Below the pieces are notes generated by a model. The model worked only from the letters and a program-made list of their open reading frames with translations. It searched no databases and was not told the origin of the DNA. From a virus, in the IMG/VR virus record IMGVR_UViG_3300002460_000144, positions 1 through 26,827 of that record: a stretch of DNA of 26,827 bases; one strand, 5' to 3'. The translations under genes and the position numbers were made by a program. Position 1 is the stretch's first letter; each line of letters opens with the position of its first letter. This document shows positions 2,028-21,503 of this stretch, one piece after another.

Positions 2028-2450
2028 CTATTCGTTTTTCTTTTCTAACAGTTTACCAAATACAGGGATTAAGTAATACCACAATGGTTTAACCTTCAAA
2101 ATAACGTGCATAAACATATTGCGAATCCAAAACATATACGCCCAAAAAAGTATTGGCAGTATCAATAAAAAATACCATTCTAATTTCAATGCAAAGTATA
2201 AAACAAAAGTTAGTGCTATTGCCATCATAGCATACAGAGCACCTTCTGATATATGAGCAGAATCATAAATGCTTTTACTTTTATCATTTTGGTCTGTGAA
2301 CCAATACCATTTCTTTTTATAATCAGCCCATTGCCAGGAAGTCCAAGCCCTTTCATCTCTCGTCTGCTCACATAATACCTGCACTTCCATATATCCTCCG
2401 ATAGAAGCAAACAGGGTTGCAATTACTATCACTAAAATTATTTCAATCAT
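2028..2450 (-). CDS. Membrane protein of unknown function
   Basis: 140 residues. Hydrophobic stretches at the N terminus (about 2-20) and two adjacent ones near 71-108 flank a polar region rich in Trp and Lys (TSWQWADYKKKWYWF). It starts at the ATG at 2450, eight bases inside the end of the secreted gene upstream. It is well spaced into the same co-directional chain. I do not recognise a family; being multi-span and next to lysis candidates, it may be a lysis or superinfection-related membrane protein. Confidence 0.5.
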   Translation of the reverse strand: MIEIILVIVIATLFASIGGYMEVQVLCEQTRDERAWTSWQWADYKKKWYWFTDQNDKSKSIYDSAHISEGALYAMMAIALTFVLYFALKLEWYFLLILPILFWAYMFWIRNMFMHVILKVKPLWYYLIPVFGKLLEKKNE

Positions 2451-2751
2451 TAATTGGCTCTACAAGTTTTTGATATTTCCTTTTTACAAACTCTCTGAAT
2501 CCTGCAAAGTCTGGTTCTTTATGAACGTATGTATAGTGAGATGAATCTTCGCAGGCTAATTCATTATAATATCCATCTTCCTGATTCCCCTTCTGGGTGA
2601 CACAACTTCTGTCATACCATTTAATAATATGTGTGTGCTGCAACGAACTATCATTAAAACATTCCTGTTCATACTCAATAATTAAATCGTAAGTATTATA
2701 CTGTGCGAATACTATCGAGTAAAGGAACAGAAAGATTATTATTGTTTTCAT
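2443..2751 (-). CDS. Small secreted protein
   Basis: 102 residues with a short, strongly hydrophobic signal peptide (residues 1-16, MKTIIIFLFLYSIVFA) and a predicted cleavage that leaves Gln at +1. The mature part is about 86 residues, rich in Tyr, Asp, Glu and His, and contains three Cys. The ATG follows AAAGGA almost directly, so the ribosome site is atypically close. It is the last of six consecutive signal-peptide genes. No family recognised. Confidence 0.55.
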   Translation of the reverse strand: MKTIIIFLFLYSIVFAQYNTYDLIIEYEQECFNDSSLQHTHIIKWYDRSCVTQKGNQEDGYYNELACEDSSHYTYVHKEPDFAGFREFVKRKYQKLVEPIND

Positions 2752-2759
2752 TCCTTTAC

Positions 2760-4622
2760 CTATTCAACTATTATAATTCTTGTTTTAATCGCAAGTGTCG
2801 CTTTCGTTGTTACTACAAAATTTTGTGATTGTCCACCAGCTAATATTGTCTCGGTATAAGCAGTTGAATAACTCCCGCCAGTTGTATTTTTAACAAACAC
2901 AGTATCGGTCTGGTCAGCAGTTTTTTGTGCAGTAGAATATGTGCCAGCATAGTTAATCTTGAAAGAAGCCGATGTTGTAGTCCATACGCTAAAAGTTGAA
3001 TCTGCATTATCAAAAGCAGAAGAAGCGATATATTCCGTACTCAACTCTGCATTATTAATCGCAGTAAAACTAAATGAAGGAATTGTATCTGCTATGCCTT
3101 GCTGATATTCCAACGCACCTAAATCCCAACTTCCGGTTCTCGGATTGCCAAGTATATCATAAGCTATATCAGGGAATAGTTCTAATAAATGAGGATATTC
3201 TTCCGCTATGTTAGCCCCTAAATCCCTCCCCGTTTCAGTATAATAATCTGTAATATTACTACCATACTTTTGCACAAAAGAAACGTCAGTTGAATTACCT
3301 GTTAATGAATTAGCATCATACAAATCACCACCAAATAAACTTGAATCCCGCCATTGTGCATAAGTATATGTCCCAAATCCCTCACCTATATAAAATGGAT
3401 TAGAGAGTCCGCCATTTTCAAAATACCCGTTATTATCTACTTCTCTGAAATATGTATAATCAAAAAAATACTGGAATCTTAACCATAAAGGGACTGTTGA
3501 ATCTGCAACTATTATATTATTCTTAAAAATTAAAGTATCTAAAATACTTCCTTCTATCCCTATCGGTATTGTAGTATTTAATCCATCATCAGCAAAAAGA
3601 AAAGTGTTATTAAATACATACCACTTTTGATGATAAACATAAGGAGAGTCCGGGAACTGGTAGGCAAACACCGGGTTCATATCAGAAAGATCATTGCGGG
3701 CAACGATAAGGTTATTGTATATATAATAATTGATTGAACTGAATGCCCCCGAAGTGTATAGAATTGCATTCCATCCTATACCCGAAGAGGTTGCAATCAA
3801 CACATTGTTTCTTATTATTAAGTAAGATGTCTCTAAAGAATCTTTGTTAGCAAATCCACTTATTTGTATAAAGTCAATATGTTGGGGTGTTTCAACCGCG
3901 ACGTTTTCAATAATAAAATAGTTATCTTCAATAGTATGAAAACCCCTGCCATCGGATATACCAATGGGGTCTAAAGACGTGGCTCTATCTTTACCAATAT
4001 GAGTATAAGTGCAACCTCTGATAGTGCCCCTCGTTCCTGCAAGATAGAACCCCCCTGTCAAACCTGCGTTATGTATTACGCAATTTTCGATTGTATTATC
4101 ATTGCCATATATATATATCAATCCATTATCAACAGTAGTAGAATCTGACCTTGTGTCGTAAAATGTAACCCCTGTTATCTTTACATTATTAATCCCCATA
4201 AGAACAAATAAGTTATATGTATCATCATTCTTTGTAATAACATAAACATCGCCGTCGTGCCCTGACTGCCAGGCAGGAGCTATTACTACTTCTTCATTGA
4301 AGGTAGGAATAAATTCTCCTTCACTTGCTTCCCTTCTAATACCATTATAAAGATTATTAGATAAAGGGTAGTAACAAGTTGAATCAGCACCGCCCGAAAC
4401 ATAAATAGTATCACCATCACCAATTATAGCCCAATTTACACCTTGATTACCAAGCCAAACAGATGAATCCAGAGTATTCCACGCATCAGTCCAGCTTCTA
4501 CCTGTATTAGCACCAGTTGCATCTCTATCTACATACCAAACATTCTGTGCGTTAAGAGTTATTGCTAATAATATGAATATGAGCCATAGGCTCATCAGCC
4601 TTTGGTTGAAAAGATATTTCAT
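2760..4622 (-). CDS. Secreted right-handed beta-helix protein, adhesin or depolymerase candidate
   Basis: 620 residues. A signal peptide (about 1-25) ends LNA before Gln. The body (about 90-470) shows repeated short strands with Asn/Ile ladders (NNTIENCVIHNAG, YLIIRNNVLIAT, LIFKNNIIVADS), the signature of a parallel beta-helix such as pectate-lyase-like and phage depolymerase folds. A DLGALEYQQG phrase near 500 is typical of the end of such helices in Bacteroidota secreted proteins, followed by a Thr/Ser-rich 110-residue C-terminal domain. The ATG abuts the stop of the LamG gene with no clear Shine-Dalgarno, implying coupling. Part of the signal peptide is encoded by a dispersed double-hairpin repeat (4581-4611). 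Enzyme activity cannot be read from the sequence. Confidence 0.65.
   Translation of the reverse strand: MKYLFNQRLMSLWLIFILLAITLNAQNVWYVDRDATGANTGRSWTDAWNTLDSSVWLGNQGVNWAIIGDGDTIYVSGGADSTCYYPLSNNLYNGIRREASEGEFIPTFNEEVVIAPAWQSGHDGDVYVITKNDDTYNLFVLMGINNVKITGVTFYDTRSDSTTVDNGLIYIYGNDNTIENCVIHNAGLTGGFYLAGTRGTIRGCTYTHIGKDRATSLDPIGISDGRGFHTIEDNYFIIENVAVETPQHIDFIQISGFANKDSLETSYLIIRNNVLIATSSGIGWNAILYTSGAFSSINYYIYNNLIVARNDLSDMNPVFAYQFPDSPYVYHQKWYVFNNTFLFADDGLNTTIPIGIEGSILDTLIFKNNIIVADSTVPLWLRFQYFFDYTYFREVDNNGYFENGGLSNPFYIGEGFGTYTYAQWRDSSLFGGDLYDANSLTGNSTDVSFVQKYGSNITDYYTETGRDLGANIAEEYPHLLELFPDIAYDILGNPRTGSWDLGALEYQQGIADTIPSFSFTAINNAELSTEYIASSAFDNADSTFSVWTTTSASFKINYAGTYSTAQKTADQTDTVFVKNTTGGSYSTAYTETILAGGQSQNFVVTTKATLAIKTRIIIVE
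4581..4611. repeat. Diverged double-hairpin repeat inside a signal-peptide coding region
   Basis: gagcc ata ggctc is followed by a second imperfect hairpin with a ttt loop (tcagcc ttt ggttga). Base by base it matches the double hairpins at 8935-8964 and 22781-22810 apart from a few substitutions. It encodes residues NQRLMSLWL of the signal peptide of the beta-helix protein. Confidence 0.65.
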
Positions 4623-5411
4623 TTAGTAAGTAGTCCCGATTAAAACTTGGTCTGCTGTTGTTACGTTTGTCCCTGTTAAATCATTCCCGCTTGCTGAATG
4701 GTCATTTAGCATTTCTGCATCGGTAGCCCCACTCCATTTATACCAAGCTACTACTGTTCCGCCTAAGTATGAAGCGTTTAGAGTTCCACCTGTATTATAT
4801 AAAGCAGTTATTTCATCTGCTGTTAAAGCATACCCGCTTACAATTTGAACTTGTCCTATTAAACCGGGATAATACCAACCTTGAGAATAACCATCTTGCC
4901 CGATTGTTAATTTAGAATCGCCAGAACTTGTATTGCCTTGATTTAAGGTTGTATAAGCCGCATTATTATCTCTATATATATTGTAATCAGATACGCCTCC
5001 TGTCAAATCAGAACAAGTTATGACAACTAACATCCACGTATCCGCCTCTGTTTCTACCACCCCACTACCCACACTACCTCCCGTTCCATTATCATAAACA
5101 AATGTCCAAACCTCAATAGAAGTTAATACAAGTACCCACCCCCTTGTGGGGTTAGCATCAGTTGAAATTATTGTTCTTTGACCTCCATCTATCGTGCTTG
5201 GCGTTTTCACCCAAGCTATGATTGAAAATGTCTTGGCAGACAGATCAACATCCGTAGGTGATGTTTTTGTTGCGTATTCATTTGAACCGTTCAGGTCAAC
5301 AGCGTAAACATCTTCTGCGACAACTTCATCATCAAAGAGTAATCCAAATTTACTCTGTGCTTGAAGTGTAAAAGATAAAAGTAAAAAACCTATTGCTAAA
5401 TATTTTTTCAT
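4623..5411 (-). CDS. Secreted LamG/concanavalin-like lectin domain protein
   Basis: 262 residues from the ATG at 5411, chosen over 5423 because GGAGAG sits just upstream and the ATG overlaps the tail-spike stop (TAATG). A signal peptide (about 1-19, ending TLQA) leaves Gln at +1. The mature protein has the LamG/Laminin_G_3 pattern: AVDLNGSNEYA, then FSIIAWVKTP, WVLVLTS, DTWMLVVITC, YNIYRDN, GLIGQVQIVSGYALTADEITALYNTG. This jelly-roll usually binds sugars, so it likely helps the particle or cell surface bind glycans. It lies between two beta-helix proteins in the adhesion module. Confidence 0.75.
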   Translation of the reverse strand: MKKYLAIGFLLLSFTLQAQSKFGLLFDDEVVAEDVYAVDLNGSNEYATKTSPTDVDLSAKTFSIIAWVKTPSTIDGGQRTIISTDANPTRGWVLVLTSIEVWTFVYDNGTGGSVGSGVVETEADTWMLVVITCSDLTGGVSDYNIYRDNNAAYTTLNQGNTSSGDSKLTIGQDGYSQGWYYPGLIGQVQIVSGYALTADEITALYNTGGTLNASYLGGTVVAWYKWSGATDAEMLNDHSASGNDLTGTNVTTADQVLIGTTY

Positions 5412-8371
5412 TATTCTCTCCAATAAATTTTGTATCTTAAATAAGTTAAGTCATCACCTATATAAGTGAAGTAAAAATAAACTTCATTACCCGCAGGGAT
5501 TGTGGCATCGTTAAAAGTTGTGATTGTATTCCAACCAGAAACATTTGTATAGGCATTAAAACAAGTTGTGCCTAATCCCAAAGCTCCGAATGTACCAACC
5601 ACCGTTATGGAATCATCAGTCCTGACTTGAATTGAATCTATTGTTATCGCACTGTGTGTATAAAAATTACTTATAGTATCAGCAGTTGTGGGGTTTAATA
5701 TCTGGTCTGGTCTTTGTGGTGCGTGAATATAAACGGGTGCTTGTAAAGCCCCACCAGTTTTTTGCCATATTCTAAAATCATCTATATAATAACTCACGTC
5801 GTTATCTTCATTTCTTATTCCTACTTGGTCGTATGCCGAACCAGATGATGTGAACGTACCACTATAAGTGCCAGCGGTAGTTACGTTGATATTATATCCC
5901 CCACTTCCTATAATTATGGTATCATTGGCGGAACAAGAATCTATTCTAAAAGAATATCCATAAGCAACATTACTGTCCATTACACCAGTTTGTGATATAC
6001 TCCAAGCGTGTGTATTACCGTCAGTCACAAAATGTAATGTGCCCGTTGGGCTTTCTTCTACATAATTCCCTGCATCTTCCAAAGAGACATTCCAGTTATC
6101 AGGGTTGTCCCCAGTCCAATCCGTGAAGTTACCGTTAAGAAGAAGATTTTCTCCTATGGCGACACTCAAAATGCCTGAATTTGGGTTAGCATAAATATCA
6201 TTGGCATTTAATCCAATGCTATTAAATTGCACTCCAGAATAATTTAACAGTCCTAATCTCGTTATATCATAGTTATCCATATCAATGTTAGTCGCAACAG
6301 CACCAATGAACGAAGGAGTGTAAATTCTTTTTACCGTTAAGTTTTCTACTGGTGTTGTCGAAGTAATTGAAAACGGTGCAGTCCCAGTGGTTAGAACAGA
6401 AAACAATCTCCCCGCATTTACGTACAGAAGATTATCCTGTCCCAACCATACCGAATTAGAACCACTTGCCTTTAACCGCAAATTACCACTTGATGCACTT
6501 ACATACCCCTCATTGCCTAAAATTAAATTTGTCAAAGTGTTAGGATAGTATTGTATAGACAAAGGCATGTAAGCCGTACCCGAATCATTAAAGGTAGTGT
6601 TAAAATAATAAGGACTTGATGAACCCAATATCCCATATTGCCAATATCTATATGTATCTGTGTTATAAAACCTTAAAGGATAATTGTTATAATAGTAATT
6701 CCCATTATAGAATGATGTTACGCCTGTGAATTTTGTTGGGCTGTTGGCATCGCCAGTTATAGCCGTATTCTTATTTAGAGATGAAACATCTTCACTAATC
6801 GCAGTAGCAATCCCCTGATAACCATATTGAATTAAATTATAAGTTGAGTTGGTTTCAAATCTGTAATAAGCATAAACATCGGCGTCATCATAAAGATTAT
6901 TCCCTATAAATGAGTTATTATTTGCATAAGTCCCTTTAACAAAATAATCATATCCGACCATCTCTACTAAGTTGCCAGCGATGTAATTACCTACATCCGC
7001 ATTAGAAGAACCACCTACAATTTCGATAGCACCAACCGAATCAATATTGCTTCCACAGGTAAGCCACCAAGTATTATTCACGATTTGAATACCATTGGCA
7101 TATCTTCTTAAATAAAGCCCTCTCCTGATTCTATAAAAATAATTCTCTGAGAAAATAGAACCATACCCCTGGAATGGAGAATTACCATTTGCAAAAGCCG
7201 TAGTATGAGTGCCTCCACAAACAATAGCATCGTTTGAAGCATTACTTGTCGCACCCGAACCAAAGAAAGTTGTGTTACGAATATATGAAGTAGTCGCAGT
7301 GGTCTTAAAAAAACTCTTATTAGCAACCTGTGTATAAAAAGTAAGATTTTCTATTGCTAATGTTCCAAGCCCCATAGTTAGAATGAAGACACTATCACCC
7401 CCATCATAAGTAAACTCTACAATAGTCCCCCCTAATGGTTCGGTAGTTGTCCCAGCCGTTTTTGTAAAATTACCAGAACCGCTTATTATTATCGGAACAT
7501 TTGTATAATACCCGCTTGAAGTATCAGAATTATGCGGTATAAGCCATTGAGAACCATCTATGTAATGTTTATCTGACAATCTTAACTCACCACCACCTAT
7601 TGAATATAAATAAGCAAAAGCTAAATCAAATGCCGTTGAATCATCTGTCGAACCATTACCAACCGCACCAAACATTTCTGGTATAACTATATAAGAAGTC
7701 TTAGTGTAGAGAGAATCAAAGTTTGCGTTTACGGTTGTGGTGTCGTCTGTAATATTTAATATGGTTCTGGTCTGGTCAACTGTTTTTCTATACCAAACAT
7801 TATCTGAGTCTTGTCCGACTATAAAAGTATTAGTTGCATTGGGTGTATCTAAAGCAACTGTGTAATAAGGTGTTGCTGTCGGTACCCCATCCGTTGGAGT
7901 CTGCCCATTCAGCATCAAATTAAAATTGCCGGATGTAACCCAGACCGTATCAGGTCCGTAAGCATAAATTGAATAGTAATATTTTGCCGCATTAAAGCTT
8001 GCAGTTTCATCCACATAAAGCGTGCAGGTTAATGTTGTGTAAGGTGCGCTGTAACTTACAGTAGTTGGTTTTTGTATTAACCTGTTACAAGTATTGGATG
8101 TGCAGGGCTTAACTACAAAGTAAAGACTATCATAAGCAGAATAATCACCGGCTGCTTTCCACGTTAAAGTTGTTGTGGATCCCCGTTCGACGAATACGTG
8201 GTTGTCGACTTGCGCGGCGGTTGTAGCAACAAATAAAAAACATACAACCATACAGACATACTTCCATACGCCCATACAACCATACAACCATATCCGCGAT
8301 TGTATGAATGTATGAATGTATGACCTGCCTACCGGACAGGCAAGTTGAATGATTGTATGAAAAGCTTTCAT
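5411..8371 (-). CDS. Tail-spike protein with beta-helix domain and an N-terminal signal peptide
   Basis: 986 residues. After a long, odd signal peptide (cleavage near residue 54, TTAA before Gln) comes a beta-sandwich of about 100 residues (TLTWKAAGDYSAYDSLYFVV ... AKYYYSIYAYG) resembling the N-terminal module of baseplate upper proteins. Around residue 235 it has FGAVGNGSTDDSTAFDLAF, the classic phage tail-spike/pectate lyase 3 motif, then beta-helix repeats to about 500. The C terminus has a jelly-roll-like part and a final module ending YLRYKIYWRE. It probably binds or cleaves host surface polysaccharide. The ATG overlaps the upstream stop (TGATG), with AGGAG about ten bases before it. The signal peptide is built largely from an 8-bp tandem repeat. 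Confidence 0.75.
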   Translation of the reverse strand: MKAFHTIIQLACPVGRSYIHTFIQSRIWLYGCMGVWKYVCMVVCFLFVATTAAQVDNHVFVERGSTTTLTWKAAGDYSAYDSLYFVVKPCTSNTCNRLIQKPTTVSYSAPYTTLTCTLYVDETASFNAAKYYYSIYAYGPDTVWVTSGNFNLMLNGQTPTDGVPTATPYYTVALDTPNATNTFIVGQDSDNVWYRKTVDQTRTILNITDDTTTVNANFDSLYTKTSYIVIPEMFGAVGNGSTDDSTAFDLAFAYLYSIGGGELRLSDKHYIDGSQWLIPHNSDTSSGYYTNVPIIISGSGNFTKTAGTTTEPLGGTIVEFTYDGGDSVFILTMGLGTLAIENLTFYTQVANKSFFKTTATTSYIRNTTFFGSGATSNASNDAIVCGGTHTTAFANGNSPFQGYGSIFSENYFYRIRRGLYLRRYANGIQIVNNTWWLTCGSNIDSVGAIEIVGGSSNADVGNYIAGNLVEMVGYDYFVKGTYANNNSFIGNNLYDDADVYAYYRFETNSTYNLIQYGYQGIATAISEDVSSLNKNTAITGDANSPTKFTGVTSFYNGNYYYNNYPLRFYNTDTYRYWQYGILGSSSPYYFNTTFNDSGTAYMPLSIQYYPNTLTNLILGNEGYVSASSGNLRLKASGSNSVWLGQDNLLYVNAGRLFSVLTTGTAPFSITSTTPVENLTVKRIYTPSFIGAVATNIDMDNYDITRLGLLNYSGVQFNSIGLNANDIYANPNSGILSVAIGENLLLNGNFTDWTGDNPDNWNVSLEDAGNYVEESPTGTLHFVTDGNTHAWSISQTGVMDSNVAYGYSFRIDSCSANDTIIIGSGGYNINVTTAGTYSGTFTSSGSAYDQVGIRNEDNDVSYYIDDFRIWQKTGGALQAPVYIHAPQRPDQILNPTTADTISNFYTHSAITIDSIQVRTDDSITVVGTFGALGLGTTCFNAYTNVSGWNTITTFNDATIPAGNEVYFYFTYIGDDLTYLRYKIYWRE
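8241..8344. repeat. Octamer tandem repeat plus palindrome, copy A, coding
   Basis: Degenerate tandem copies of an 8-bp unit (acaaccat on the plus strand), then gtatgaat copies, then an imperfect palindrome gcctaccggacaggc. It encodes most of residues 10-45 of the tail-spike signal peptide. Nearly the same array occurs at 8807-8894. Confidence 0.8.
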
Positions 8372-8907
8372 CAGAACCCACTCCTGATCAACGGAATCAA
8401 CTTCCGGTCTGCTGCTTCAGTTTCCCAGGCATCGCCGCTGGTGTAACATCCAAACCTTATGTATCTTTTAAGCGCATAAATCAATTGCGGTTTTAAGATA
8501 TTTATCCCCGCAACTTCCGGTGTGAATGTGTAAAGATCACCTTCGTAATGCACAGGCTTCCAATCGTAAGGCGTTCCGCCGGATGTATCTGCAGCCGAGT
8601 TATATGTTGCAGAAGTTTGTATGAAAAACTTTGCGGCTGTAAATGCAGCGGTTGTATCAAAATCCACCCCAACAAGTATTCTACCGTTAAGATCGTAACC
8701 TGCGGTTGTATCACCATCTTCATAATAGTATGTTGTGGAGTCGCCCGAAAGGATTACAAGCGTGTCGCGGTCGGTGGTGAATTGTGCAAGCGCAGGCAAT
8801 GCAAAGCATACAACCATACAACCATACAACCATACGCGGTTGAATGAATGTATGAATGTATGACCTGCCTGCCGGACAGGCAAGATGTATGAATGTTGTT
8901 TTTTCAT
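8371..8907 (-). CDS. Small secreted protein of the tail-fibre module
   Basis: 178 residues. The start at 8907 has AAAGG seven bases upstream, so the unusual N terminus is truly part of the reading frame. The first 41 residues form an extended signal peptide: LPVRQAG from a palindromic repeat, VWLYGCMVVC from an octamer repeat, then FALPALA before Gln. The mature part (137 residues) is Asp/Thr/Tyr-rich, predicted beta, with FDTTAAFTAAKFFIQTS echoing the FNAAKYYYSIY stretch in the N-terminal domain of the tail spike, suggesting a related baseplate or fibre adaptor module. Function not proved. Confidence 0.6.
   Translation of the reverse strand: MKKQHSYILPVRQAGHTFIHSFNRVWLYGCMVVCFALPALAQFTTDRDTLVILSGDSTTYYYEDGDTTAGYDLNGRILVGVDFDTTAAFTAAKFFIQTSATYNSAADTSGGTPYDWKPVHYEGDLYTFTPEVAGINILKPQLIYALKRYIRFGCYTSGDAWETEAADRKLIPLIRSGF
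8807..8894. repeat. Octamer tandem repeat plus palindrome, copy B, coding
   Basis: Three clean copies of the 8-bp unit catacaac, a short linker, gtatgaat copies, and the palindrome gcctgccggacaggc (8867-8881). It encodes most of the n- and h-regions of the signal peptide of the gene at 8371-8907. It is a second copy of the array at 8241-8344. Confidence 0.8.
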
Positions 8908-8934
8908 TTTGTTACCTTTATGTTGTTAATTTTT

Positions 8935-8964: not shown

Positions 8965-8978
8965 AATTTTTAATTGCT

Positions 8979-9911
8979 TTAATTATTACTTCTCGAAACT
9001 TCTACCCAAGCCAATGCGGGCTCCTCTGCAATACACATCAAGGTTATTATATCATTGTACCCCATCGTAAAATTGCCTGCTAAATATAAATTGTCATCAC
9101 CGCTAACATAATCTTTTAACAAAATCGTATAAGGAACTGTCGCATTTCTTAAAACAATTATTTGCCCGTTAGTAAATGCCGTACCCGTTATCCTGCTGAT
9201 ACCATCCGTTAAGTTGCCAGGTAAAATAAACGCTGCTATTGGGACTTGTCCCACCGGGAAAGTTATTATCGTATCTGCGACCGTTATAGGAGAGTACGCA
9301 TCAACACCCAACACGAAAGTATTAAAGACCGTGCCTGAATCCATAGTAAAGGATTCGCTAATATTTATATTTGGCACTGAAACATTTTTACTAAAAGTTA
9401 TAGTAGAATCATTATACTTTATAGAAGCCGAATCATTACCGGCGTCATTTATTATCGTAAATGTATTTGCATAAATATTAAAAAACGGCGCTGTGTTCCT
9501 GCCGATAATGGATGATGCTTGTGTTCTTTGTATTCCGTGTGTCCACATTTGTGTGGTGCAAACAACACTATCACCGTTAAAGAAAACTTTCCCGTGGCTT
9601 CCTGCATTAAAAGTTGCACCGTCAAAATTATTTATTCCGTTCCAACTGTTAGAAGCATTAAGCAAGGTTGTAATGCGGGCTTCGGTTGTGTCTCTTGCTT
9701 GTAACCAAAAATTAGAGAAAATCATTTTTCGCCAGGCATATTTGTTAGCCACCTTTGTTTGAAATCCGATTATATCATTTGCCCCGAATGTAGTTTTGCT
9801 CGTAAAATTAGCGGTGGAATCATAAGTAACCTGTGCATTTATATTTTCGGGCATTAAGCTGTAAGCAACAAGCATTAAGCCAAACAAAATTATTCTATTT
9901 AAAATCTTCAT
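8979..9911 (-). CDS. Tail-fibre-like protein with signal peptide
   Basis: 310 residues. A signal peptide of about 26 residues (MKILNRIILFGLMLVAYSL ... NINA) leaves Gln at +1. The mature sequence is Asn/Thr/Ser-rich and beta-prone, with LLNASNSWNGINNFDGATF like the repeating strands of trimeric fibres. The C terminus (GNFTMGYNDIITLMCI ... AWVEVSRSNN) has the look of the closing module of Bacteroidota phage tail fibres. The ATG has a good Shine-Dalgarno (AAGAGG). It follows the tail-tip genes directly, as fibres do, but the export signal is unusual for a virion protein. Confidence 0.65.
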   Translation of the reverse strand: MKILNRIILFGLMLVAYSLMPENINAQVTYDSTANFTSKTTFGANDIIGFQTKVANKYAWRKMIFSNFWLQARDTTEARITTLLNASNSWNGINNFDGATFNAGSHGKVFFNGDSVVCTTQMWTHGIQRTQASSIIGRNTAPFFNIYANTFTIINDAGNDSASIKYNDSTITFSKNVSVPNINISESFTMDSGTVFNTFVLGVDAYSPITVADTIITFPVGQVPIAAFILPGNLTDGISRITGTAFTNGQIIVLRNATVPYTILLKDYVSGDDNLYLAGNFTMGYNDIITLMCIAEEPALAWVEVSRSNN

Positions 9912-9959: not shown

Positions 9960-10481
9960 TTAATCCGTTTGTGCCGTTTGATCCGTATCTGTTTCAACTA
10001 CCTGGTCCGAATCCATTTGAACTATTCCTTCGCCCGATGTAACCTGCAGACTCCCGAGGTTAACCGGCTTCTTGCTTTTGAATATTATTCTGAAAGTATC
10101 ATAAGCCCAGGGTGTTTCCAGCGGGAAGAGTTCCGTTATCTGCATCCTGAATTTTACATAGCCACCATCTTTATCTACAAAATAATCTGCATTCTGACTC
10201 GGTGATAAAGCAGTAACTTCCGTTTTGTTATAACTTGAATAAAAATTTTTAAACCACGTTAAAGAGTTGGTTAAGTTTTTATGCAGCCTGCACAAAACAG
10301 TAACGGTGATATGATCGTAGTCTGCTTTGTTGGTCCAGCTGCGTGTTGTGTTGATAATACTTTCGTGCTCAATATCCCTGCTTTCAAGCTCGATAGATTC
10401 AATAAAAGATTTTTCAATGCTGATTTCATCCTCATCAACTACAAATTTTGGAACTCCCGTGCCGAATAAATAACTTTCCAT
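9960..10481 (-). CDS. Tail-tip or baseplate protein, unknown family
   Basis: 173 residues, no signal peptide or membrane span, starting at an ATG that overlaps the upstream stop by one base (TAATG). Predicted beta-rich core (DYDHITVTVLCRLHKN, GGYVKFRMQITELFPLETPW, YDTFRIIFKSKK) with an acidic, Gln/Asp/Thr-rich C-terminal tail (MDSDQVVETDTDQTAQTD). Position directly after the hub-like gene and before the fibres suggests a small tail-tip subunit. It is the last cytoplasmic-type protein before the signal-peptide block begins. Confidence 0.6.
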   Translation of the reverse strand: MESYLFGTGVPKFVVDEDEISIEKSFIESIELESRDIEHESIINTTRSWTNKADYDHITVTVLCRLHKNLTNSLTWFKNFYSSYNKTEVTALSPSQNADYFVDKDGGYVKFRMQITELFPLETPWAYDTFRIIFKSKKPVNLGSLQVTSGEGIVQMDSDQVVETDTDQTAQTD

Positions 10482-11644
10482 TACAGCTCCTGCACTATTT
10501 CTACAGTGAGGCCGTCAATATCCATCGAAACCTCTTTAACTCTTACCGGCACCTGCTGTGTGGTTATATCCCTGGTGCCGTTAAATGAACCAATTTTTGC
10601 CTGCGCATCATTATAAACAAACGCCAGGTTCGAATAATTATTTACCGGCCACAAGCCCAGCCCGAATGTGTTGCCTGCGGCTTCCCAATATTTTTCATAC
10701 ATAATTATAAAAGATGCCGGCCAGTCAATTAAGTTTTTACCCAGGCCGGTAGAATATTTGTGACTTGCAAGAGATGATCCTGTAATCTGCGCGTAAGCAC
10801 TCCTCGCCGCGAATTCTGCATCAAAAGAATATCCTTCAATATCATTTTCCACATCATAAGTTTCTTTATTGAATGTCAGATCGTCAGTTATGGGGAAGCT
10901 CAGATTATTCCTTACAGAAACAATAAGCTGTTCCGGCACACCGGTCTGGCTCCAGCTTATATCGAAGCCCATATTGTTGGTCGGGATTGTTCCAATTTTA
11001 TTGCAGAACCATTGAAAGAAATCCCAGAAGGTAGGCGTTAAAAGTATTTTTGCAGGGTCTGCTATTATATTTGTTCTGTTACAGGCAACTGATTGGTTAA
11101 TACAGTAAAACATATTTTCATCAACACGCAGATGCTCAAGATTCATAACCCTGTCCACTCCGCCGAATGATATTGTCTGGATATAAGTAGTGCCCGGGGG
11201 AAGAGAAACGTTAATACCTAACTGGTTAAATATCTTTTCTATAATCCACAGAATTTGGACGGAAGGAAGCCCTTCATTGTCTGAAGCCCTATACTGCTGC
11301 GGAGTTGCACCGGAAGCAAGGATGCCCGATAGTTCTGTAATCAGGCGGTCTTTCATAACTGAAAGCGAAGAAATTATTTTTAAGTTCCAGGCTCTGTTTT
11401 GATAATCATATCTTCTTTCAAAAATTTTTCCTTTGTAAAAAGGATAAAATGATGATGCAGCAAAAGCAATTTTAATTTGATTTCCTTTGGCAATAAGCGC
11501 GGTTGGTATCTTGCCGGAAACAGCCATATCAATTTCGCCTAATATCGGAGTCCTGTCGCGGTTGCGATAAATTATCGGAACATCGCTGCTTCCTATAACG
11601 TATTCACTTATATCTGTTGCACCGATTTTAACTATCAGACTCAT
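10481..11644 (-). CDS. Tail-tip/baseplate hub-like protein
   Basis: 387 residues. The start overlaps the tape-measure stop (ATGA), the usual place of the distal tail or hub protein. The beginning MSLIVKIGATDISEYVIGSS and IKIAFAASSFYPFYKGKIFERRYD look like the split-barrel/Ig-like start of baseplate hub proteins that describe a path then a plug domain. The rest alternates beta strands and loops, with no visible enzyme motif. Assignment rests mainly on position and size, so the exact class (hub, distal tail, tail-associated) is undecided. Confidence 0.6.
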   Translation of the reverse strand: MSLIVKIGATDISEYVIGSSDVPIIYRNRDRTPILGEIDMAVSGKIPTALIAKGNQIKIAFAASSFYPFYKGKIFERRYDYQNRAWNLKIISSLSVMKDRLITELSGILASGATPQQYRASDNEGLPSVQILWIIEKIFNQLGINVSLPPGTTYIQTISFGGVDRVMNLEHLRVDENMFYCINQSVACNRTNIIADPAKILLTPTFWDFFQWFCNKIGTIPTNNMGFDISWSQTGVPEQLIVSVRNNLSFPITDDLTFNKETYDVENDIEGYSFDAEFAARSAYAQITGSSLASHKYSTGLGKNLIDWPASFIIMYEKYWEAAGNTFGLGLWPVNNYSNLAFVYNDAQAKIGSFNGTRDITTQQVPVRVKEVSMDIDGLTVEIVQEL

Positions 11645-13371
11645 CTAAAATCCCCAACGTTTTTGCCCGACCTGGTCATATTATTTATTTCTTTTTGGAT
11701 TACGGCTGCAATCACTTTGCCGTCTAAAGAAACCTGCACAACTCCTCCTCCGCCCTTACTCTTCCTGCTTACGTGGAGATTGGTTGTAAGTATTGCATTC
11801 CTTATCTGGTCGAGCTTATTTTCCATACGGGAAGTCTGCCCGGCGTTATAAACATCCAGCGTTTCATTTTTATGAACCATAACCGGGTAGCCGCCGCCAT
11901 AAGCAGGGGTAGTGTAGCTGCCGCCCATAGCAAAAGATGGAATCTTTGTATGTGAAATATTCCCGCCCAGGTTGGTAATCCTTCCGCCCTTTTCCAGACC
12001 GATAAGCGAAAGTAATCCGCCGATTCCAAAACCACCGCCTCCGCCAAACATTGAAGCAATAACTAAAATCATATTTGATATTGAATCAACCATTGCAATT
12101 GCCTGCGAAAGCTGCCCAACAAACGTATGTCCTGCAAAAGAAAAATTGCTCGCCATTTGGTTTGATAATGAAACAAGCGCGTTCATTGGGCTTACGGCGT
12201 TTTCGATCTCCTTATCCAATTCCTCCCAACGTTTTTCGCGAGTTGATTTTCTGCCGGTCGGGGCCTGCGTTAATTTTTTATTTAACCAATCTTCGGCACT
12301 CTGATAATCAGGGAGTATCTCCATTTCCTCATCCATATCGCGCATACGTTCATAGATATCGCTCATTATGTCATATTGCTCTTTTAACAATTCAATTTCT
12401 TTTTCTTTTTTAAGAGTCAAAGAATCTTGTATTTTTGCTTCTTCTTTTTTCAAATCTATGTATTGAGCCTCTGTAAGATTTCCACCTTCTATGGTTTCTT
12501 TTATTTCCTGAAGCCGGTCCTGCTGCTGCTTAAGCCAGGGAACGGTAGCCGCCACTAAAGAAGTGTAGGTTTTCATTGCTTCTGGTTTTTCCGGTTCTTC
12601 ACCAGGAAGCGGCATCCACATTCCGGTTTCAAAATACTGCCTCAATAGCTTACCCGAATCAACTAAGCTTTTCATAGAAAAATTAAGAGCTGTAAAAAAG
12701 CCAAGCCAGACGGGTGCCAATTTTTCGCCAATTTCTTCCTGCTGATCATTAATTTCATTGTTTAATCTTTCCATTTGCCCCGTTAAAGTTTTACCCTGGG
12801 CTTCTGCCTGCCCCATATAAATTGTCAACGCTTTAAGAAGACTATTATATCTTTCAGTGGAACCAGCTGCCCCCTCGACTTTAATTCCGTAACGTGCCAA
12901 AGCATTTGTAGATGAGGCGAAGGTTTTTGTAACAAGATCGGCTGCACTGGAAAGATCGACTCCCTTTGCAGTTGCAAAGTCCTGAGTAACTCTTATCAAT
13001 CCCTTTATTTTGTCTTCCTCTTTTGTAAAGGCAGCAATCAAACTCATTGCTTCAATGGTTGCATCATCGCTAAAGGTCGTTATTTTTTGCAAATCTTTTG
13101 CATAGTTCTGAAGTGATCTTGAGTTTTTACCGAGTGCGGTGTCCAGCTTTTTAATAGCAACTTCACTTTCCTTAAAAGCATCAATTGAGCTTCTCATAAA
13201 ACTTAAAACCTGTTGCGCAGAAAAAGCAGCAACCAAAGCCACACCAATTCTATTCATAGCTTTTTCCATCCTGCCGGATGATTTTAATACCCTACCCTCA
13301 ACCTGGTCAATCTTTTTTAATGCGGCTTCGTTACGCGCATCTAATTCAATTATATAAACTTTTTTAGGCAA
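11641..13371 (-). CDS. Tail tape measure protein
   Basis: 576 residues. It begins with a helical, charged section (LDARNEAALKKIDQVEGRVL), has a hydrophobic segment (about 41-60), the tape-measure-type phrase AADLVTKTFASSTNALARYGIK followed by QMERLNNEINDQQEEIGEKLAPV, long coiled coils (about 270-370), and a Gly-rich hydrophobic stretch (about 430-470). All are typical of TP901/lambda-type tape measures, which set tail length and deliver DNA. At about 1.5 angstrom per residue this predicts a short tail near 85 nm. The start is TTG at 13371, separated from its likely Shine-Dalgarno by a hairpin. Confidence 0.85.
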   Translation of the reverse strand: MPKKVYIIELDARNEAALKKIDQVEGRVLKSSGRMEKAMNRIGVALVAAFSAQQVLSFMRSSIDAFKESEVAIKKLDTALGKNSRSLQNYAKDLQKITTFSDDATIEAMSLIAAFTKEEDKIKGLIRVTQDFATAKGVDLSSAADLVTKTFASSTNALARYGIKVEGAAGSTERYNSLLKALTIYMGQAEAQGKTLTGQMERLNNEINDQQEEIGEKLAPVWLGFFTALNFSMKSLVDSGKLLRQYFETGMWMPLPGEEPEKPEAMKTYTSLVAATVPWLKQQQDRLQEIKETIEGGNLTEAQYIDLKKEEAKIQDSLTLKKEKEIELLKEQYDIMSDIYERMRDMDEEMEILPDYQSAEDWLNKKLTQAPTGRKSTREKRWEELDKEIENAVSPMNALVSLSNQMASNFSFAGHTFVGQLSQAIAMVDSISNMILVIASMFGGGGGFGIGGLLSLIGLEKGGRITNLGGNISHTKIPSFAMGGSYTTPAYGGGYPVMVHKNETLDVYNAGQTSRMENKLDQIRNAILTTNLHVSRKSKGGGGVVQVSLDGKVIAAVIQKEINNMTRSGKNVGDFR

Positions 13372-15373: not shown

Positions 15374-15414
15374 TTTAATACTCCTTCCATACGTTCATAC
15401 ATCCATACAAGCGC

Positions 15415-15454: not shown

Positions 15455-15480
15455 GTATGATTGTTATTTTTATAATAATT

Positions 15481-16608: not shown

Positions 16609-16638
16609 TTCTTAATTCTTCATTCTTAATTGTTAATT
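16608..16638. repeat. AT-rich dispersed repeat at gene junction
   Basis: The plus strand reads attcttaattcttcattctt then aattgttaatt. Units of aattc and ttaatt recur. It supplies the stop codon of the FII-like gene (TAA at 16626-16628) and the TTG start of the methyltransferase. Such runs are stock intergenic repeats in Bacteroidota-like genomes (recalled, not searched). Confidence 0.6.
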
Positions 16639-17348: not shown

Positions 17349-18689
17349 TTAGTCAAGATCGCTTGCATAATAGAAAGCTTCATCGTGCCTTACTGTGGTA
17401 TCTGCAAGCTGATTAAAGGTTATTCTTACCTGGTGGTAAGTTGCAAGTGTAAACGGATCAATAACAACATCAAGCGCATCCCACATAGCATAGTATGCCT
17501 GGTTAAATGCACCAAGGAAAATATATTTTTCAGTTATTGATTCAGTGAACTTTGCCATTCTTCCTGCAAGTCGGTCATCGTCACCCATCAAATAAACAGG
17601 ATAACCGGATGCTTTTTCTCTTCCTCTCAAAACAGCTTCGCCATAAGCATTTGTAACAAAGCTTAATGGTCCTAAAGCAGCCTTATCACTCTTAATGCTT
17701 TTTATAGCACCAAGAATAGTTGCCCAGCTTGCAGAAGCCTGAGATGAATTGTTAATTGAAGTAAGATTCACGAGACCTTTGAACTGACCGCTCGCACCCG
17801 AACCGTGGAAGAAACCAGCCTGAAATCCGAGAGCCATTACCTGCCTTCCATCTTCCTGCAGAACAATATCAAGCGCAGGATCTGACTGGATGATAGCTTG
17901 CTTGCTTATATCAACAAAGAAACCGCCTCTTTTTGGGGTCATCGTGATTTCAGTTGTTGCAGGATCACCTTCAAGCACTGCAGCATTTTCAGTTGCAGCC
18001 CAGCCGAAAGCATTTCCGGTTGTCAGTTTTGGAATTTTAATATCGCCTTTTCTTCCCGGGAGCATTCTCAATCCCAACTGGTCAAGAATCATTTCTGCTC
18101 TCAGGGCATCAATCCACTCACCGCCAATGTGATCAGTTCCAACAAACTCACCGCCGGTTGTTGCGGTTGTGTTAACATCGGTTGCAAACCTTTGCATTCC
18201 TCTTCTTTTCATAAAGCGATGATCAAGAACTGAGTGAGGCATAAAGAAACTCAATCCTTTTTTGCTTTCGCCTCTCTTGCCGGTTACTTTTGCATACTCT
18301 TCAGAAATATCAAGCTCAGGTGAACTATCACCATTCAGCATTGCAGAGATTGCACGGCTTAAACTGTAACCTTCAACTTGTTTTTGGGTAAGCTGAATTG
18401 TCGGCTTCTGAGCTGATTCTTTAAGCTGACTGGTTGTTACATTCAAAATGAATTCTGAAAAATCAGTTGCCGGTCTGCCAAGCTTTATGTGATTATCTTT
18501 CACATCGGCAAGCTTAACACTGGCAGGCACTTTGTCTTTCCACTCATTGTAGAAAGCTTCGATGTCGGCTTTTCTTAGCTTTTCAGAATTTTCACGGTCC
18601 TCAGAAAGTTCAATTTTAACTTTCTTTTTTGCTTCGTCAAGAACTACATTCTGATCTTCCTGGCTTAGTTCATTTAATTTAGTTGGCAT
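17349..18689 (-). CDS. Internal-start capsid precursor (scaffold plus major capsid protein)
   Basis: Within the protease-capsid ORF, ATG 18687-18689 (residue 221, MPTKLNE) is preceded by AAAAGGAG (GGAG at 18697-18700) with seven bases spacing, one of the strongest ribosome sites in the window. It would give a separate 446-residue product with delta and capsid domains but no protease. This would supply many capsid subunits per protease, like lambda Nu3 made from inside gene C. Confidence 0.65.
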   Translation of the reverse strand: MPTKLNELSQEDQNVVLDEAKKKVKIELSEDRENSEKLRKADIEAFYNEWKDKVPASVKLADVKDNHIKLGRPATDFSEFILNVTTSQLKESAQKPTIQLTQKQVEGYSLSRAISAMLNGDSSPELDISEEYAKVTGKRGESKKGLSFFMPHSVLDHRFMKRRGMQRFATDVNTTATTGGEFVGTDHIGGEWIDALRAEMILDQLGLRMLPGRKGDIKIPKLTTGNAFGWAATENAAVLEGDPATTEITMTPKRGGFFVDISKQAIIQSDPALDIVLQEDGRQVMALGFQAGFFHGSGASGQFKGLVNLTSINNSSQASASWATILGAIKSIKSDKAALGPLSFVTNAYGEAVLRGREKASGYPVYLMGDDDRLAGRMAKFTESITEKYIFLGAFNQAYYAMWDALDVVIDPFTLATYHQVRITFNQLADTTVRHDEAFYYASDLD

Positions 18690-19349
18690 TTCATTGCTCC
18701 TTTTATTAATGTTTAAATTGTAATTAATTTTTTGGTCAAACTTTATGGGCAGGCCAAACTCATTAGCAAACTTTATTATCTCTTCTTTTTTCTGAAGATC
18801 AAAATAATCTGCACTGAAAACTCCCACGGTCGGCACTTCACCCATCCACGCGGAAGAACCTTCAACCGGTTTCCAGTTAAAAATTTCATAGACAGGCATT
18901 TGTGTTAAGATTGCAAGATTTTTTTCTTCGTCGTTCATTTCTTCAAGAGGCAGTTCGCGGTATTCAAGTATTTCAAAACCAACGGATGAATAAGGACGTA
19001 TGCCGTCAATAACATCATTCATCAATTCTTCACCAAGCCCGCTTTTACTGAACTTTACATCTCCGCCAAGCACTTCATCAGTCAAATATCCGTTCAGGAC
19101 CATACCGCGTTGATCTTCAATATTATGATTCATCAGAAACGGTGCACCCTGTTTTTGTTTCCATCGTGATAGTTCAACATTCTTTGGTTTAGCAAGAACT
19201 TTTAAGTTGCCCCACCATTTGGAAACAAGCGCAGGTTTATAAAATGTCATCGGAATAATTCTCTTGTCTGAATCGAAATTCACCGCGTTGTGCTCTATTG
19301 TAAAGCAATGCGGATTTTCTTTAATATATTTTGCTAATTTTTCGTCCAT
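17349..19349 (-). CDS. Prohead protease - scaffold - major capsid protein polyprotein (HK97 type)
   Basis: 666 residues. The N-terminal domain (about 1-190) matches HK97-type prohead proteases: FLMNHN with His75, and GIRPYSSVGFEI around Ser121/122. A charged helical region (about 221-375) with Lys/Glu-rich repeats resembles the scaffold/delta domain. From about 375 the HK97 capsid fold is seen: GGEFVGTDHIGGEWIDALR, DIKIPKLTTGNAFGWAATENAAV, TMTPKRGGFFVDISKQAI, SFVTNAYGEAVLRG and a C terminus ending DEAFYYASDLD. In most phages protease and capsid are separate genes. The ATG has GGAG about nine bases upstream. Confidence 0.85.
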   Translation of the reverse strand: MDEKLAKYIKENPHCFTIEHNAVNFDSDKRIIPMTFYKPALVSKWWGNLKVLAKPKNVELSRWKQKQGAPFLMNHNIEDQRGMVLNGYLTDEVLGGDVKFSKSGLGEELMNDVIDGIRPYSSVGFEILEYRELPLEEMNDEEKNLAILTQMPVYEIFNWKPVEGSSAWMGEVPTVGVFSADYFDLQKKEEIIKFANEFGLPIKFDQKINYNLNINKRSNEMPTKLNELSQEDQNVVLDEAKKKVKIELSEDRENSEKLRKADIEAFYNEWKDKVPASVKLADVKDNHIKLGRPATDFSEFILNVTTSQLKESAQKPTIQLTQKQVEGYSLSRAISAMLNGDSSPELDISEEYAKVTGKRGESKKGLSFFMPHSVLDHRFMKRRGMQRFATDVNTTATTGGEFVGTDHIGGEWIDALRAEMILDQLGLRMLPGRKGDIKIPKLTTGNAFGWAATENAAVLEGDPATTEITMTPKRGGFFVDISKQAIIQSDPALDIVLQEDGRQVMALGFQAGFFHGSGASGQFKGLVNLTSINNSSQASASWATILGAIKSIKSDKAALGPLSFVTNAYGEAVLRGREKASGYPVYLMGDDDRLAGRMAKFTESITEKYIFLGAFNQAYYAMWDALDVVIDPFTLATYHQVRITFNQLADTTVRHDEAFYYASDLD
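18687..18703 (-). promoter_or_regulatory. Internal ribosome binding site in the protease-capsid ORF
   Basis: On the mRNA AAAAGGAGCAATGAAATG. The Shine-Dalgarno and spacing are better than those of most annotated starts here. Confidence 0.7.
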
Positions 19350-19350
19350 A

Positions 19351-20964
19351 CTAATTCTCCACTAATTTTTTGTAATGTCCGTTGCCGTGTTTTTTTATGA
19401 GCAAAGCCATATCTTTTAATATCAGATGATTTCCTTCTTTTTTATTTTCAACTTCATCATCATCTTCATCATCAACCATTTTATTGTTAGTATTCACAGA
19501 ACCAGAGAAAGTAATGCCAGCCTCTTTAAGTTTTTGGTTTTCTCTTGCCAGCTCGTCAATAATATCATCAAAATCATAACCCTGCCGTTTAAGTTCTTTG
19601 GTTCTTGTAGATAGCCCGTTATTAATTGCATCGTTCGCGGCCTGGATATCTTTATAAGGATCAACCCACGCCCATCTGCGGCCAAGAAATTCGGGTTTGT
19701 TTATTCTTTCAAGCTGTGAGTAAGGAAGCTTTAAAACTCCGTTCATTATAGCCGCCTTAAGCCATTTTGTAAAGATGATATTGAGAAATGATTCGATGAT
19801 AAAATTCTGATCAACAAGCCACTGGTCGCGCTCGGTAAGCAAGCCGGAACGCATCGAAGAAAAGTTTACACTTTCAAGATCGCTTAGCCAGGCATTGTAG
19901 CTCATACCAAGAGCAACAGCAATTTTCCTGTAAAAAGCTTTTACAAAAAACGGATATTCTCCTGTAGGATAACTCGGAGCCCAATTGGAAACATCCTCGC
20001 CGGGATTAAGATAAATCGTTTCGCCGTTTGAAGCATAATTGATTAAGTTACCGCTTGCATCTTCCGTGTCACCCTGCATCTCGGTATCTCTTTCCCTTTT
20101 TACAATCATAGATTTCATTGCACCGATTCTTGCATTTATTACTGCAGCTTCATCATAGCCGTGAAGCTGGCGCATTTCCATCATCACGGGTGCAAGATGC
20201 GAAATACCTCTTACCTGGTTGCTGTGTTCAATATCATAAATATGATTAATGTATTCAGCATCGATTGCAATTCTTTTTCCGCTGCCGGAATTTCCAAGAA
20301 AAGAATACATCCCGCTTACTTCATCCTGCGGATTATATTGCCTGAAATGATACCGCACCCGTTTATTCCATTCGTTCAATTCGACACCCATTATTATCGC
20401 ATTGCTGCCGCGGACTTCGTTAAAACTTTCATCCAGCAGATCAGGCTCAATCAAATCCAATGAATAGCCGAATTTGTTTACAGATTTATCGGGGTAATAA
20501 TCACGCGCAATAAATTCACCATCACGTTTATATTGTTCGATAAGAAGCCAGAGCACCTGGGTAAACGTCAGAGACCCGCTCATTGTGCAAAAATCTTTTT
20601 TCTTCCATTCTTCCCAGGCGTTCTCAATTAAATCATTAATATTTTTATCAGGCGTGCCGTCTGCTTTCTTTACCCTCATCTGGAGTTTAAAACCATCGGG
20701 ACCTATTACATCGCTTATAAGTCTTTTTCTGTAAGCTCTGATAAGAGGATTATTCTTCCACATATCGCGTGCACGCTCACGCACTTTGCGCATATCATAT
20801 TTAATCTGCCTGTTTATGGTAGCGGTATCACTTATCCAATCGGCAACCCAGCGATTATTTTGCCCGCCGGAATAACCGAACTTCTGCAATTTTTTAAACT
20901 GCTCGCTTGCCGCCTTCCTTATAAAAGGAATTTTGAATACAATATTTCGGAAGAATTTATTCAT
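19351..20964 (-). CDS. Portal protein, lambda gpB family
   Basis: 537 residues. The sequence follows the lambda portal layout: early ARDMWKNNPLIRAYRKRLISDVIGPDGF, then GEFIARDYY, DLIEPDLLDE, YINHIYDIEHSNQVRGISHLAPVM, VNARIGAMKSMIVKRE, then GEDVSNWAPSYPTGEYPFFVKAFYRKIAVALGMSYN. The portal forms the dodecamer ring through which DNA enters the head. The start at 20964 has no Shine-Dalgarno; a dispersed repeat fills the upstream gap. The stop is one base from the ATG of the protease gene. Confidence 0.9.
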   Translation of the reverse strand: MNKFFRNIVFKIPFIRKAASEQFKKLQKFGYSGGQNNRWVADWISDTATINRQIKYDMRKVRERARDMWKNNPLIRAYRKRLISDVIGPDGFKLQMRVKKADGTPDKNINDLIENAWEEWKKKDFCTMSGSLTFTQVLWLLIEQYKRDGEFIARDYYPDKSVNKFGYSLDLIEPDLLDESFNEVRGSNAIIMGVELNEWNKRVRYHFRQYNPQDEVSGMYSFLGNSGSGKRIAIDAEYINHIYDIEHSNQVRGISHLAPVMMEMRQLHGYDEAAVINARIGAMKSMIVKRERDTEMQGDTEDASGNLINYASNGETIYLNPGEDVSNWAPSYPTGEYPFFVKAFYRKIAVALGMSYNAWLSDLESVNFSSMRSGLLTERDQWLVDQNFIIESFLNIIFTKWLKAAIMNGVLKLPYSQLERINKPEFLGRRWAWVDPYKDIQAANDAINNGLSTRTKELKRQGYDFDDIIDELARENQKLKEAGITFSGSVNTNNKMVDDEDDDEVENKKEGNHLILKDMALLIKKHGNGHYKKLVEN

Positions 20965-20967
20965 TAG

Positions 20968-20999
20968 ATTGCTTCGTTACACTCGCAATGACAGCGAGG
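20968..20999. repeat. Dispersed repeat in portal leader
   Basis: The plus-strand attgcttcg ttacactcgcaat core with attgc/gcaat ends is a stock repeat in many bacterial genomes (recalled, not searched). It fills the gap between the secreted protein's stop and the portal start, where a Shine-Dalgarno would be expected. Confidence 0.6.
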
Positions 21000-21503
21000 T
21001 TAAGAGCCAAAAAATGTAATTGTCACCTTACAATTATTTGGGTCTGTTGGATCGTTGCCTGAGACTGCGCCGCGTGTTCTAAAATTAAATCCTTCATAAC
21101 CTCTAAAGCTTGCAGCTACAATACCGTGATTGGCCACATATAATATTTGCGTTCCGGTTGCAGCCGCCGCAACGTCTAATGTAACTATATAAGTTATAAC
21201 AGATCCCTGGACTGCAGTTCCGCTCGAAGTCCAGTTTACAGGATACCAGTTGAGTGTATCAACATCCGTTTCATTCTGAACGGTCATAGAAAATACCATA
21301 GAATCTATTTTGGTGCATCCGAATTCTTTTAACAGCCCCGCAAAATTTCCAACCTGGTAAGTTTCCCAAACTGTATTAGCGATGGTCCCGAGGTTGTAAG
21401 ATTTTACGCCAACTATTCCCTGCGCCTGTCCTTCGACTCCGCTCAGGATGACGAATGATAATGCAATCATAAAAATTGCTAAGAAAGATTTTAATTTTTT
21501 CAT
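21000..21503 (-). CDS. Secreted protein inserted in the head-gene cluster
   Basis: 167 residues. A clear signal peptide of about 27 residues (MKKLKSFLAIFMIALSFVIL, ending GQA) leaves Gln at +1. The mature part is Thr/Ser/Val-rich and predicted beta, with two Cys (GCTKIDS, NNCKVTI). It lies between the gpW-type joiner and the portal, where lambda has no such gene, so it could be an inserted 'moron' or a decoration protein. The last part of the signal peptide is encoded by a dispersed repeat (21430-21452). Shine-Dalgarno AAAGGAAAAC precedes the ATG. Confidence 0.65.
   Translation of the reverse strand: MKKLKSFLAIFMIALSFVILSGVEGQAQGIVGVKSYNLGTIANTVWETYQVGNFAGLLKEFGCTKIDSMVFSMTVQNETDVDTLNWYPVNWTSSGTAVQGSVITYIVTLDVAAAATGTQILYVANHGIVAASFRGYEGFNFRTRGAVSGNDPTDPNNCKVTITFFGS
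21430..21452. repeat. Dispersed repeat inside a signal-peptide coding region
   Basis: The plus-strand core cttcgactccgctcaggatg is a stock genome repeat. It is read as VILSGVEG, the end of the hydrophobic core and the polar c-region of the secreted protein at 21000-21503. Confidence 0.7.

What the first reader, a model, noticed from the sequence alone, without database searches (positions are those of the whole stretch)
2443..21503. Eight predicted exported proteins of this phage all have Gln at +1
Seen: the products at 297-689, 2443-2751, 2760-4622, 4623-5411, 5411-8371, 8371-8907, 8979-9911 and 21000-21503 each have a signal peptide whose best cleavage leaves Gln first (for example NA|Q, LA|Q, TAA|Q, QA|Q). 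Known: in Bacteroidota many signal-peptidase I substrates have Gln at +1 and are cyclised to pyroglutamate (the 'Q-rule'). The rule being met in all eight argues that the signals are real and selected for export, not chance hydrophobic starts. It also places the host in this group.
Basis: partly seen in the sequence, partly recalled or inferred. Interest (0 to 1): 0.85.

Follow-up and report, generated by a model that had tools for sequence, protein, structure and literature searches.

The report
Phage tail-end proteins tagged for export
Nearly every protein that this uncultured phage encodes just after its tail-tip genes starts with a bacterial export signal cut in front of a glutamine, which is unusual because tailed phages normally build their tails inside the cell, so either these tail-end proteins reach the virus from outside the cytoplasm or they are a secreted toolkit used around lysis.

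Summary
A signal-peptide finder that ignores the +1 residue cuts seven of the eight proteins before Gln (window Gln 3.4%; P about 7e-7 for 7 of 17 candidates); the eighth (297-689) only as SYS|Q. Two related phages keep the pattern. In orthologues, near-identity begins at Ala|Gln while the signals in front are unrelated; one signal is shared by two different passengers. So the leaders look like real, interchangeable, cleaved export signals.

The eight are three things: a coupled block between tail-tip and lysis genes (2443-9911: beta-helix, LamG-like and fibre-like proteins); a single-gene cassette beside the portal gene (21000-21503); and a spanin-like lysis protein (297-689). Seven phages of Bacteroidia hosts examined have 0 or 1 such gene each.

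The host claim needs correction. The phage uses Shine-Dalgarno sites (50% against 9% background), unlike Bacteroidia and their phages; the host is probably an SD-using Q-rule lineage such as Ignavibacteria.

Single Q-rule phage proteins are known from Porphyromonas phages. A whole exported tail-end block was not found in the papers searched. Best reading: late-made, Sec-exported adhesin or glycan-active module, joining virions after export or acting free; which is unresolved. New variant of a known kind.

The parts
8979..9911 (-). Exported protein 1 of the block, 310 aa, signal ...PENINA|QVTYD
   Evidence: blind finder; sibling L010:4880-5800 is 56% identical when mature and keeps IQA|Q
8371..8907 (-). 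Exported protein 2, 178 aa, signal ...ALPALA|QFTTD; mature part 87-93% identical in relatives, signals unrelated
   Evidence: DNA homology with G008 begins at 8787, the Ala -1 codon
5411..8371 (-). Exported fibre-like protein 3, 986 aa, signal ...ATTAA|QVDNH; conserved N-terminal Ig-like domain, exchanged C-terminal parts
   Evidence: start overlaps the previous stop (TGATG at 8371); model residues 55-156 form a beta sandwich at modest confidence
4623..5411 (-). Exported LamG/concanavalin-like protein 4, 262 aa, signal ...FTLQA|QSKFG
   Evidence: PF13385 E 6e-13; blind finder; 82% identical mature part in G008
2760..4622 (-). Exported beta-helix protein 5, 620 aa, signal ...AITLNA|QNVWY; its signal is shared with a different passenger in G008
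   Evidence: PF13229 E 3e-5, just under the curated cut-off
2443..2751 (-). Exported small protein 6, 102 aa, signal ...SIVFA|QYNTY
   Evidence: blind finder
21000..21503 (-). Exported single-gene cassette beside the portal gene, 167 aa, signal ...GVEGQA|QGIVG
   Evidence: 79% identical in G008 although portal, MCP and TerL are 25-31% identical; DNA match limited to 20997-21539
297..689 (-). Lysis-region protein with signal (SYS|QN) and C-terminal membrane segment, start nested in 577-945: spanin-like pair
   Evidence: in G008 the orthologue lies before a muramidase (PF11860)
577..945 (-). Partner gene with N-terminal membrane anchor, overlaps 297-689 (inner-spanin-like)
1369..1599 (-). Holin-like small membrane protein, VYFA|QHD (ninth Gln+1 candidate, more likely an anchor)
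   Evidence: phrog_4237 holin E 7e-4
9960..11644 (-). Two presumed tail-tip genes (9960-10481, 10481-11644) without signals, upstream of the block
   Evidence: function by position only, no family match
11641..13371 (-). Tail tape measure protein, no signal
   Evidence: PF06791 E 0.003, below cut-off; position; relatives
17349..20964 (-). Major head protein with protease (17349-19349) and portal (19351-20964), no signals
   Evidence: phrog_617, phrog_21

Best explanation
The gene block between tail tip and lysis genes (2443-9911) encodes adhesin or glycan-active proteins, made late in one translationally coupled operon. Each carries an N-terminal Sec signal. The host exports them; signal peptidase I cuts at Ala|Gln; host glutaminyl cyclase probably turns the Gln into pyroglutamate. 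With no known type IX sorting domain they should collect in the periplasm and be freed at lysis. There they most likely act at the cell surface, either by docking on tails as fibres added last, outside the cytoplasm, or as free surface-clearing proteins. The 21000-21503 protein is a separately moving exported cassette, perhaps a superinfection-exclusion protein. 297-689 belongs to lysis. Shown: the signals, Gln at +1, conservation, module breakpoints, operon layout. Inferred: export, cleavage, pyroglutamate, periplasmic pool, docking.
For: Blind cuts before Gln in 7 of 8, 6 of 7 in sibling G002, and at least 6 of about 10 in G008. Mature parts are 87-96% identical while signals are 14-45% identical in two orthologous sets, with homology starting at Ala|Gln. 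DNA homology to G008 begins at 8787 and 8205 and ends at 4557, within 12 bases of the Gln codons at 8784, 8212 and 4547. Only 0 or 1 Gln+1 gene was found in each of seven Bacteroidia phages and none in two proteobacterial ones. The block genes abut or overlap each other. The fibre-like protein has a 93-96% conserved N-terminal domain and exchanged C-terminal parts. A distant form of that domain lies in a prophage tail region without a signal. No T9SS domain was found by NCBIfam.
Against: No SignalP run and no protein data. The cleavage model is my own heuristic. Nothing shows that these proteins are in the virion. G008 has a non-exported protein matching phrog_11439 (tail fibre) just before the block, so the exported proteins need not be the receptor binders. 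The beta-helix, choice-of-anchor and LamG domains are also common in ordinary bacterial secreted proteins. Not every member obeys the rule: FA|TNW and TA|ALP occur in relatives.
Confidence: 0.6

Rival explanations
1. Secreted cargo, not virion parts: the block modifies the host envelope or its surroundings (lysogenic conversion or late surface clearing), and the phage uses non-exported tail-tip proteins for adsorption.
For: Every member has a signal; domains resemble bacterial surface proteins (LamG, beta-helix, choice-of-anchor Q); G008 carries a separate non-exported tail-fibre-family protein; the P. gingivalis phage authors read their Q-rule proteins this way.
Against: Tight coupling to tail and lysis genes on one strand argues for late, not lysogenic, expression; conserved N-domain with swapped C-terminal parts is typical of tail fibres; a distant N-domain relative sits in a prophage tail region without a signal.
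Confidence: 0.3
2. The signals are kept but not cleaved: the hydrophobic N termini act as membrane or tail anchors during assembly.
For: Some starts are long and odd (5411-8371 and 8371-8907 have 40-53 residue leaders built partly from DNA repeats).
Against: Gln at +1 and homology starting exactly at Ala|Gln make sense only if cut there; an anchor that touches other proteins should be conserved, yet it is the least conserved part.
Confidence: 0.06
3. Chance: hydrophobic starts with incidental Gln.
For: Short hydrophobic starts are common and my finder is permissive.
Against: P about 7e-7 in the window; recurrence in relatives with different signals; 0-1 such genes in each of nine comparison phages.
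Confidence: 0.01

Closest known systems
Bacteroidetes Q-rule substrates of signal peptidase I (PMC5837995, PMC10653852)
   Same: Sec signal, Ala at -1, Gln at +1; pyroglutamate expected
   Different: Those are host proteins; here they are phage genes, in a phage whose SD usage points away from Bacteroidia
Q-rule proteins of Porphyromonas gingivalis Nixviridae phages (PMC10367356)
   Same: Phage-encoded proteins with signals that expose Gln
   Different: Five genes of unknown function there; here a contiguous tail-end block plus a portal-side cassette and a lysis gene, with module breakpoints at the cleavage sites
Tail fibre / receptor-binding modules of siphophages
   Same: Position after the tail tip and before lysis genes; conserved N-domain, exchanged C-terminal parts; beta-helix and lectin-like domains
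   Different: Such proteins normally carry no Sec signal; no block of signal-bearing tail-end genes was found in the nine comparison phages
Phage superinfection-exclusion proteins exported to the envelope (such as Cor of phi80/N15, Llp of T5; recalled, not tested)
   Same: Small exported single-gene cassette that moves between phages (21000-21503)
   Different: No sequence relation tested or found; function unknown

Membership tests
Q-rule SPI substrate | n-region charge, hydrophobic core, small residues at -3 and -1 | tested here: met
   home-made finder, 8 of 8 with a core, 7 of 8 with the expected site; SignalP not available
Q-rule SPI substrate | Gln at +1 | tested here: met
   7 of 8 with Gln at +1 ignored; the eighth as an alternative site
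Q-rule SPI substrate | cleavage and pyroglutamate formation in the host | not testable with these tools
   needs N-terminal mass spectrometry
Q-rule SPI substrate | host belongs to a lineage with high Q-values | tested here: inconclusive
   genomes of the class with related head genes show Q of 18-67% in small samples against 8% in unrelated contigs; host itself unknown
Phage tail fibre / receptor-binding module | gene position between tail tip and lysis genes | tested here: met
Phage tail fibre / receptor-binding module | conserved attachment N-domain with exchanged C-terminal parts | tested here: met
Phage tail fibre / receptor-binding module | cytoplasmic protein without export signal | tested here: not met
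   so not filed as ordinary tail fibres
Phage tail fibre / receptor-binding module | present in the virion | not testable with these tools
   needs virion proteomics
Type IX secretion cargo | C-terminal sorting domain | tested here: not met
   no T9SS model up to E 0.1 in NCBIfam for the exported proteins; a diverged domain could be missed
Lysogenic-conversion moron | single-gene insert absent from close relatives of the head module | tested here: met
   21000-21503 only: absent in prophage L090 and phages Alexa and CRP-811 between the same neighbours
Lysogenic-conversion moron | own promoter and expression in the lysogen | not tested
   no expression data

The most novel reading that the evidence does not exclude
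A tailed phage whose adhesion proteins are sent through the host Sec pathway, cut and capped with pyroglutamate in the periplasm, and fitted to the tail only outside the cytoplasm: tail assembly finished after export.
Probability: 0.35. Interest if true: 0.85.

Novelty: new variant of a known kind. Interest (0 to 1): 0.55.

Why it matters
Tailed-phage tails are thought to be completed in the cytoplasm. A whole tail-end module with working export signals, kept through recombination with breakpoints at the cleavage sites, would mean either a late assembly step outside the cytoplasm or a secreted phage toolkit active around lysis. Both are testable by simple proteomics, and the Gln+1 mark makes such modules easy to find in uncultured phages. 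The Shine-Dalgarno comparison also gives a cheap way to split Q-rule hosts into Bacteroidia and other lineages.

Tried and rejected
Structure prediction of 21000-21503 gave mean pLDDT 50 and was not used. The fibre N-domain model (pLDDT 63) matched many Ig-like folds with no stand-out match, so it does not identify a family. No relative of the five exported proteins searched was found in 50,697 phage records beyond a chance-level hit, so function by homology failed. A GTDB genome scan with the capsid protein found nothing. The 29-base palindromic repeat proved widespread, mostly in Patescibacteria and Omnitrophota, so it does not tell the host; it only supplied genomes used as search centres. 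The class searched is not named by the tool; centres titled Ignavibacteria and Bacteroidetes drew the same genomes. A11 hits in that class were noise. Further viral-contig scans found no fourth relative. Literature searches for exported tail proteins gave nothing relevant beyond PMC10367356. PMC6199706 states that DGR-target proteins of phages lack signal peptides, which agrees with the contrast drawn here.

Full report
What is there. The window is a 26.8 kb linear viral record without taxonomy. All long genes are on the minus strand. Head genes are clear: terminase 23349-25457, head-tail joining 21522-22049, portal 19351-20964, major head protein with protease 17349-19349, head closure 16626-16940. 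A tape measure protein (11641-13371; PF06791 at E 0.003, below cut-off) and two presumed tail-tip genes (9960-11644) follow. Then come the exported block 2443-9911 and a set of small membrane and lysis genes.

The observation. A finder that does not look for Gln at +1 cuts seven of the eight named proteins before Gln. Given 3.4% Gln in the proteome, 7 of 17 candidate starts has P about 7e-7. The eighth, 297-689, needs the weaker site SYS|Q, which its relative shares. Gln-aware scanning adds holin-like 1369-1599 and a false hit in the tape measure.

Relatives. Portal searches brought a near-identical contig (L002) and a sibling, G002, with portal and capsid 95-96% identical. The fibre N-domain brought a third phage, G008 (37.7 kb, with integrase). 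In G002, six genes after the tail tip and the gene before the portal have signals; 6 of 7 cut before Gln, the other reads FA|TNW. In G008, eight consecutive genes after the tail tip and the gene before the portal have signals, most with Gln.

Why the signals are real. In 8371-8907 and in the N-domain of 5411-8371 the mature parts are 87-96% identical among the three phages, while the leaders share 14-45% and differ in length; the alignment becomes near-invariant at Ala|Gln. At the DNA level, homology between window and G008 begins at 8787 and 8205 (Gln codons 8784 and 8212). For 2760-4622 it ends at 4557 (Gln codon 4547): here the leader is shared (83%) and the passenger is not (27%). Leader and passenger are therefore exchanged at or within a few codons of the predicted cleavage site, in both directions. 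The simplest reason is that the leader is a removable unit.

How unusual. The same Gln-aware scan gives 0 or 1 gene in each of seven phages of Bacteroides, Croceibacter, Flavobacterium and Nonlabens hosts and none in two proteobacterial phages with related heads; the three phages here have 7 to 11 hits each, including a false hit in the tape measure in two of them. Single cases exist: Hankyphage has one beside its lysin (TFA|QTG) and FCL-2 has one adhesin-like gene (STYS|QVG).

Three groups. (1) Block 2443-9911: fibre-like, LamG-like and beta-helix proteins; genes from 8907 to 2760 abut or overlap by one base, and 2443-2751 overlaps the next gene, so they should be made late with the lysis genes. 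(2) 21000-21503: 79% identical in G008, whose terminase, portal and capsid are only 25-31% identical to the window's, but about a third identical in the sibling whose head is 95% identical; the DNA match covers just this gene. It moves alone, always beside the portal, which fits an exchangeable envelope-acting protein such as superinfection exclusion (inference). (3) 297-689: overlaps 577-945 and precedes a muramidase in G008; a spanin-like pair.

How it may work. Step 1, shown by sequence: Sec-type leaders with Ala|Gln. Step 2, inferred: export and cutting by signal peptidase I, pyroglutamate by host glutaminyl cyclase. Step 3, inferred: no type IX sorting domain was found, so the proteins should wait in the periplasm until lysis. 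Step 4, open: they dock on tails, or act free on glycans. For docking: gene position, the conserved N-domain with swapped C-terminal parts, and a distant relative of that domain in a prophage tail region without a signal. Against: G008 has a separate non-exported tail-fibre-family protein, and the domains also occur in ordinary secreted proteins.

Host. Half of the window's gene starts have an SD-like motif against 9% background; G002 and G008 are similar; sampled genomes carrying related prophages show 24-42%; all seven phages of Bacteroidia hosts are at or about background. Bacteroidia ribosomes are reported not to use SD (PMC9976891; PMC6847099). The Q-rule is also strong in Ignavibacterium album. 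The host is thus more likely an SD-using Q-rule lineage, Ignavibacteria being the best guess, than Bacteroidia. The searched class is not named by the tool, so this stays an inference.

Known or new. Q-rule phage proteins were reported for Porphyromonas phages, five genes of unknown function. A whole tail-end block was not found in the papers searched. I rate it a new variant of a known kind.

Noticed in passing
window 8292-8356 and 8832-8896, with octamer runs at 8241-8292 and 8807-8834: The same compound DNA repeat (a CCTGCC...GGCAGG-type palindrome plus runs of an 8-base unit) lies inside the signal-coding part of two neighbouring genes and lengthens both leaders without breaking them.
   Followed up: partly
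window 15388-15470: Array of 8-base repeats GTATGATT between genes, of the same kind as those in the signals.
   Followed up: no
window 4571-4620, 8926-8975, 22772-22821: 50-base double-hairpin repeat; its core occurs exactly in 59 contig stretches of many uncultured phyla, mostly Patescibacteria.
   Followed up: partly
window 14349-14861 and 14882-15373: Two adjacent paralogous genes (about 74% identical over 143 bases), matching one gene in prophage L090, probably tail tube proteins: a tandem duplication also present in the sibling.
   Followed up: no
L126:45363-45806 (Flavobacterium phage FCL-2); L129:20053-20439 (Hankyphage): Single unannotated Gln+1 exported proteins in known Bacteroidia phages, one adhesin-like and one beside the lysin.
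   Followed up: no
L011:1-11717 (strand as in the window): A near-identical contig extends the phage about 3.9 kb beyond window position 26827, with a primase-like gene 86% identical at DNA level to G008.
   Followed up: no
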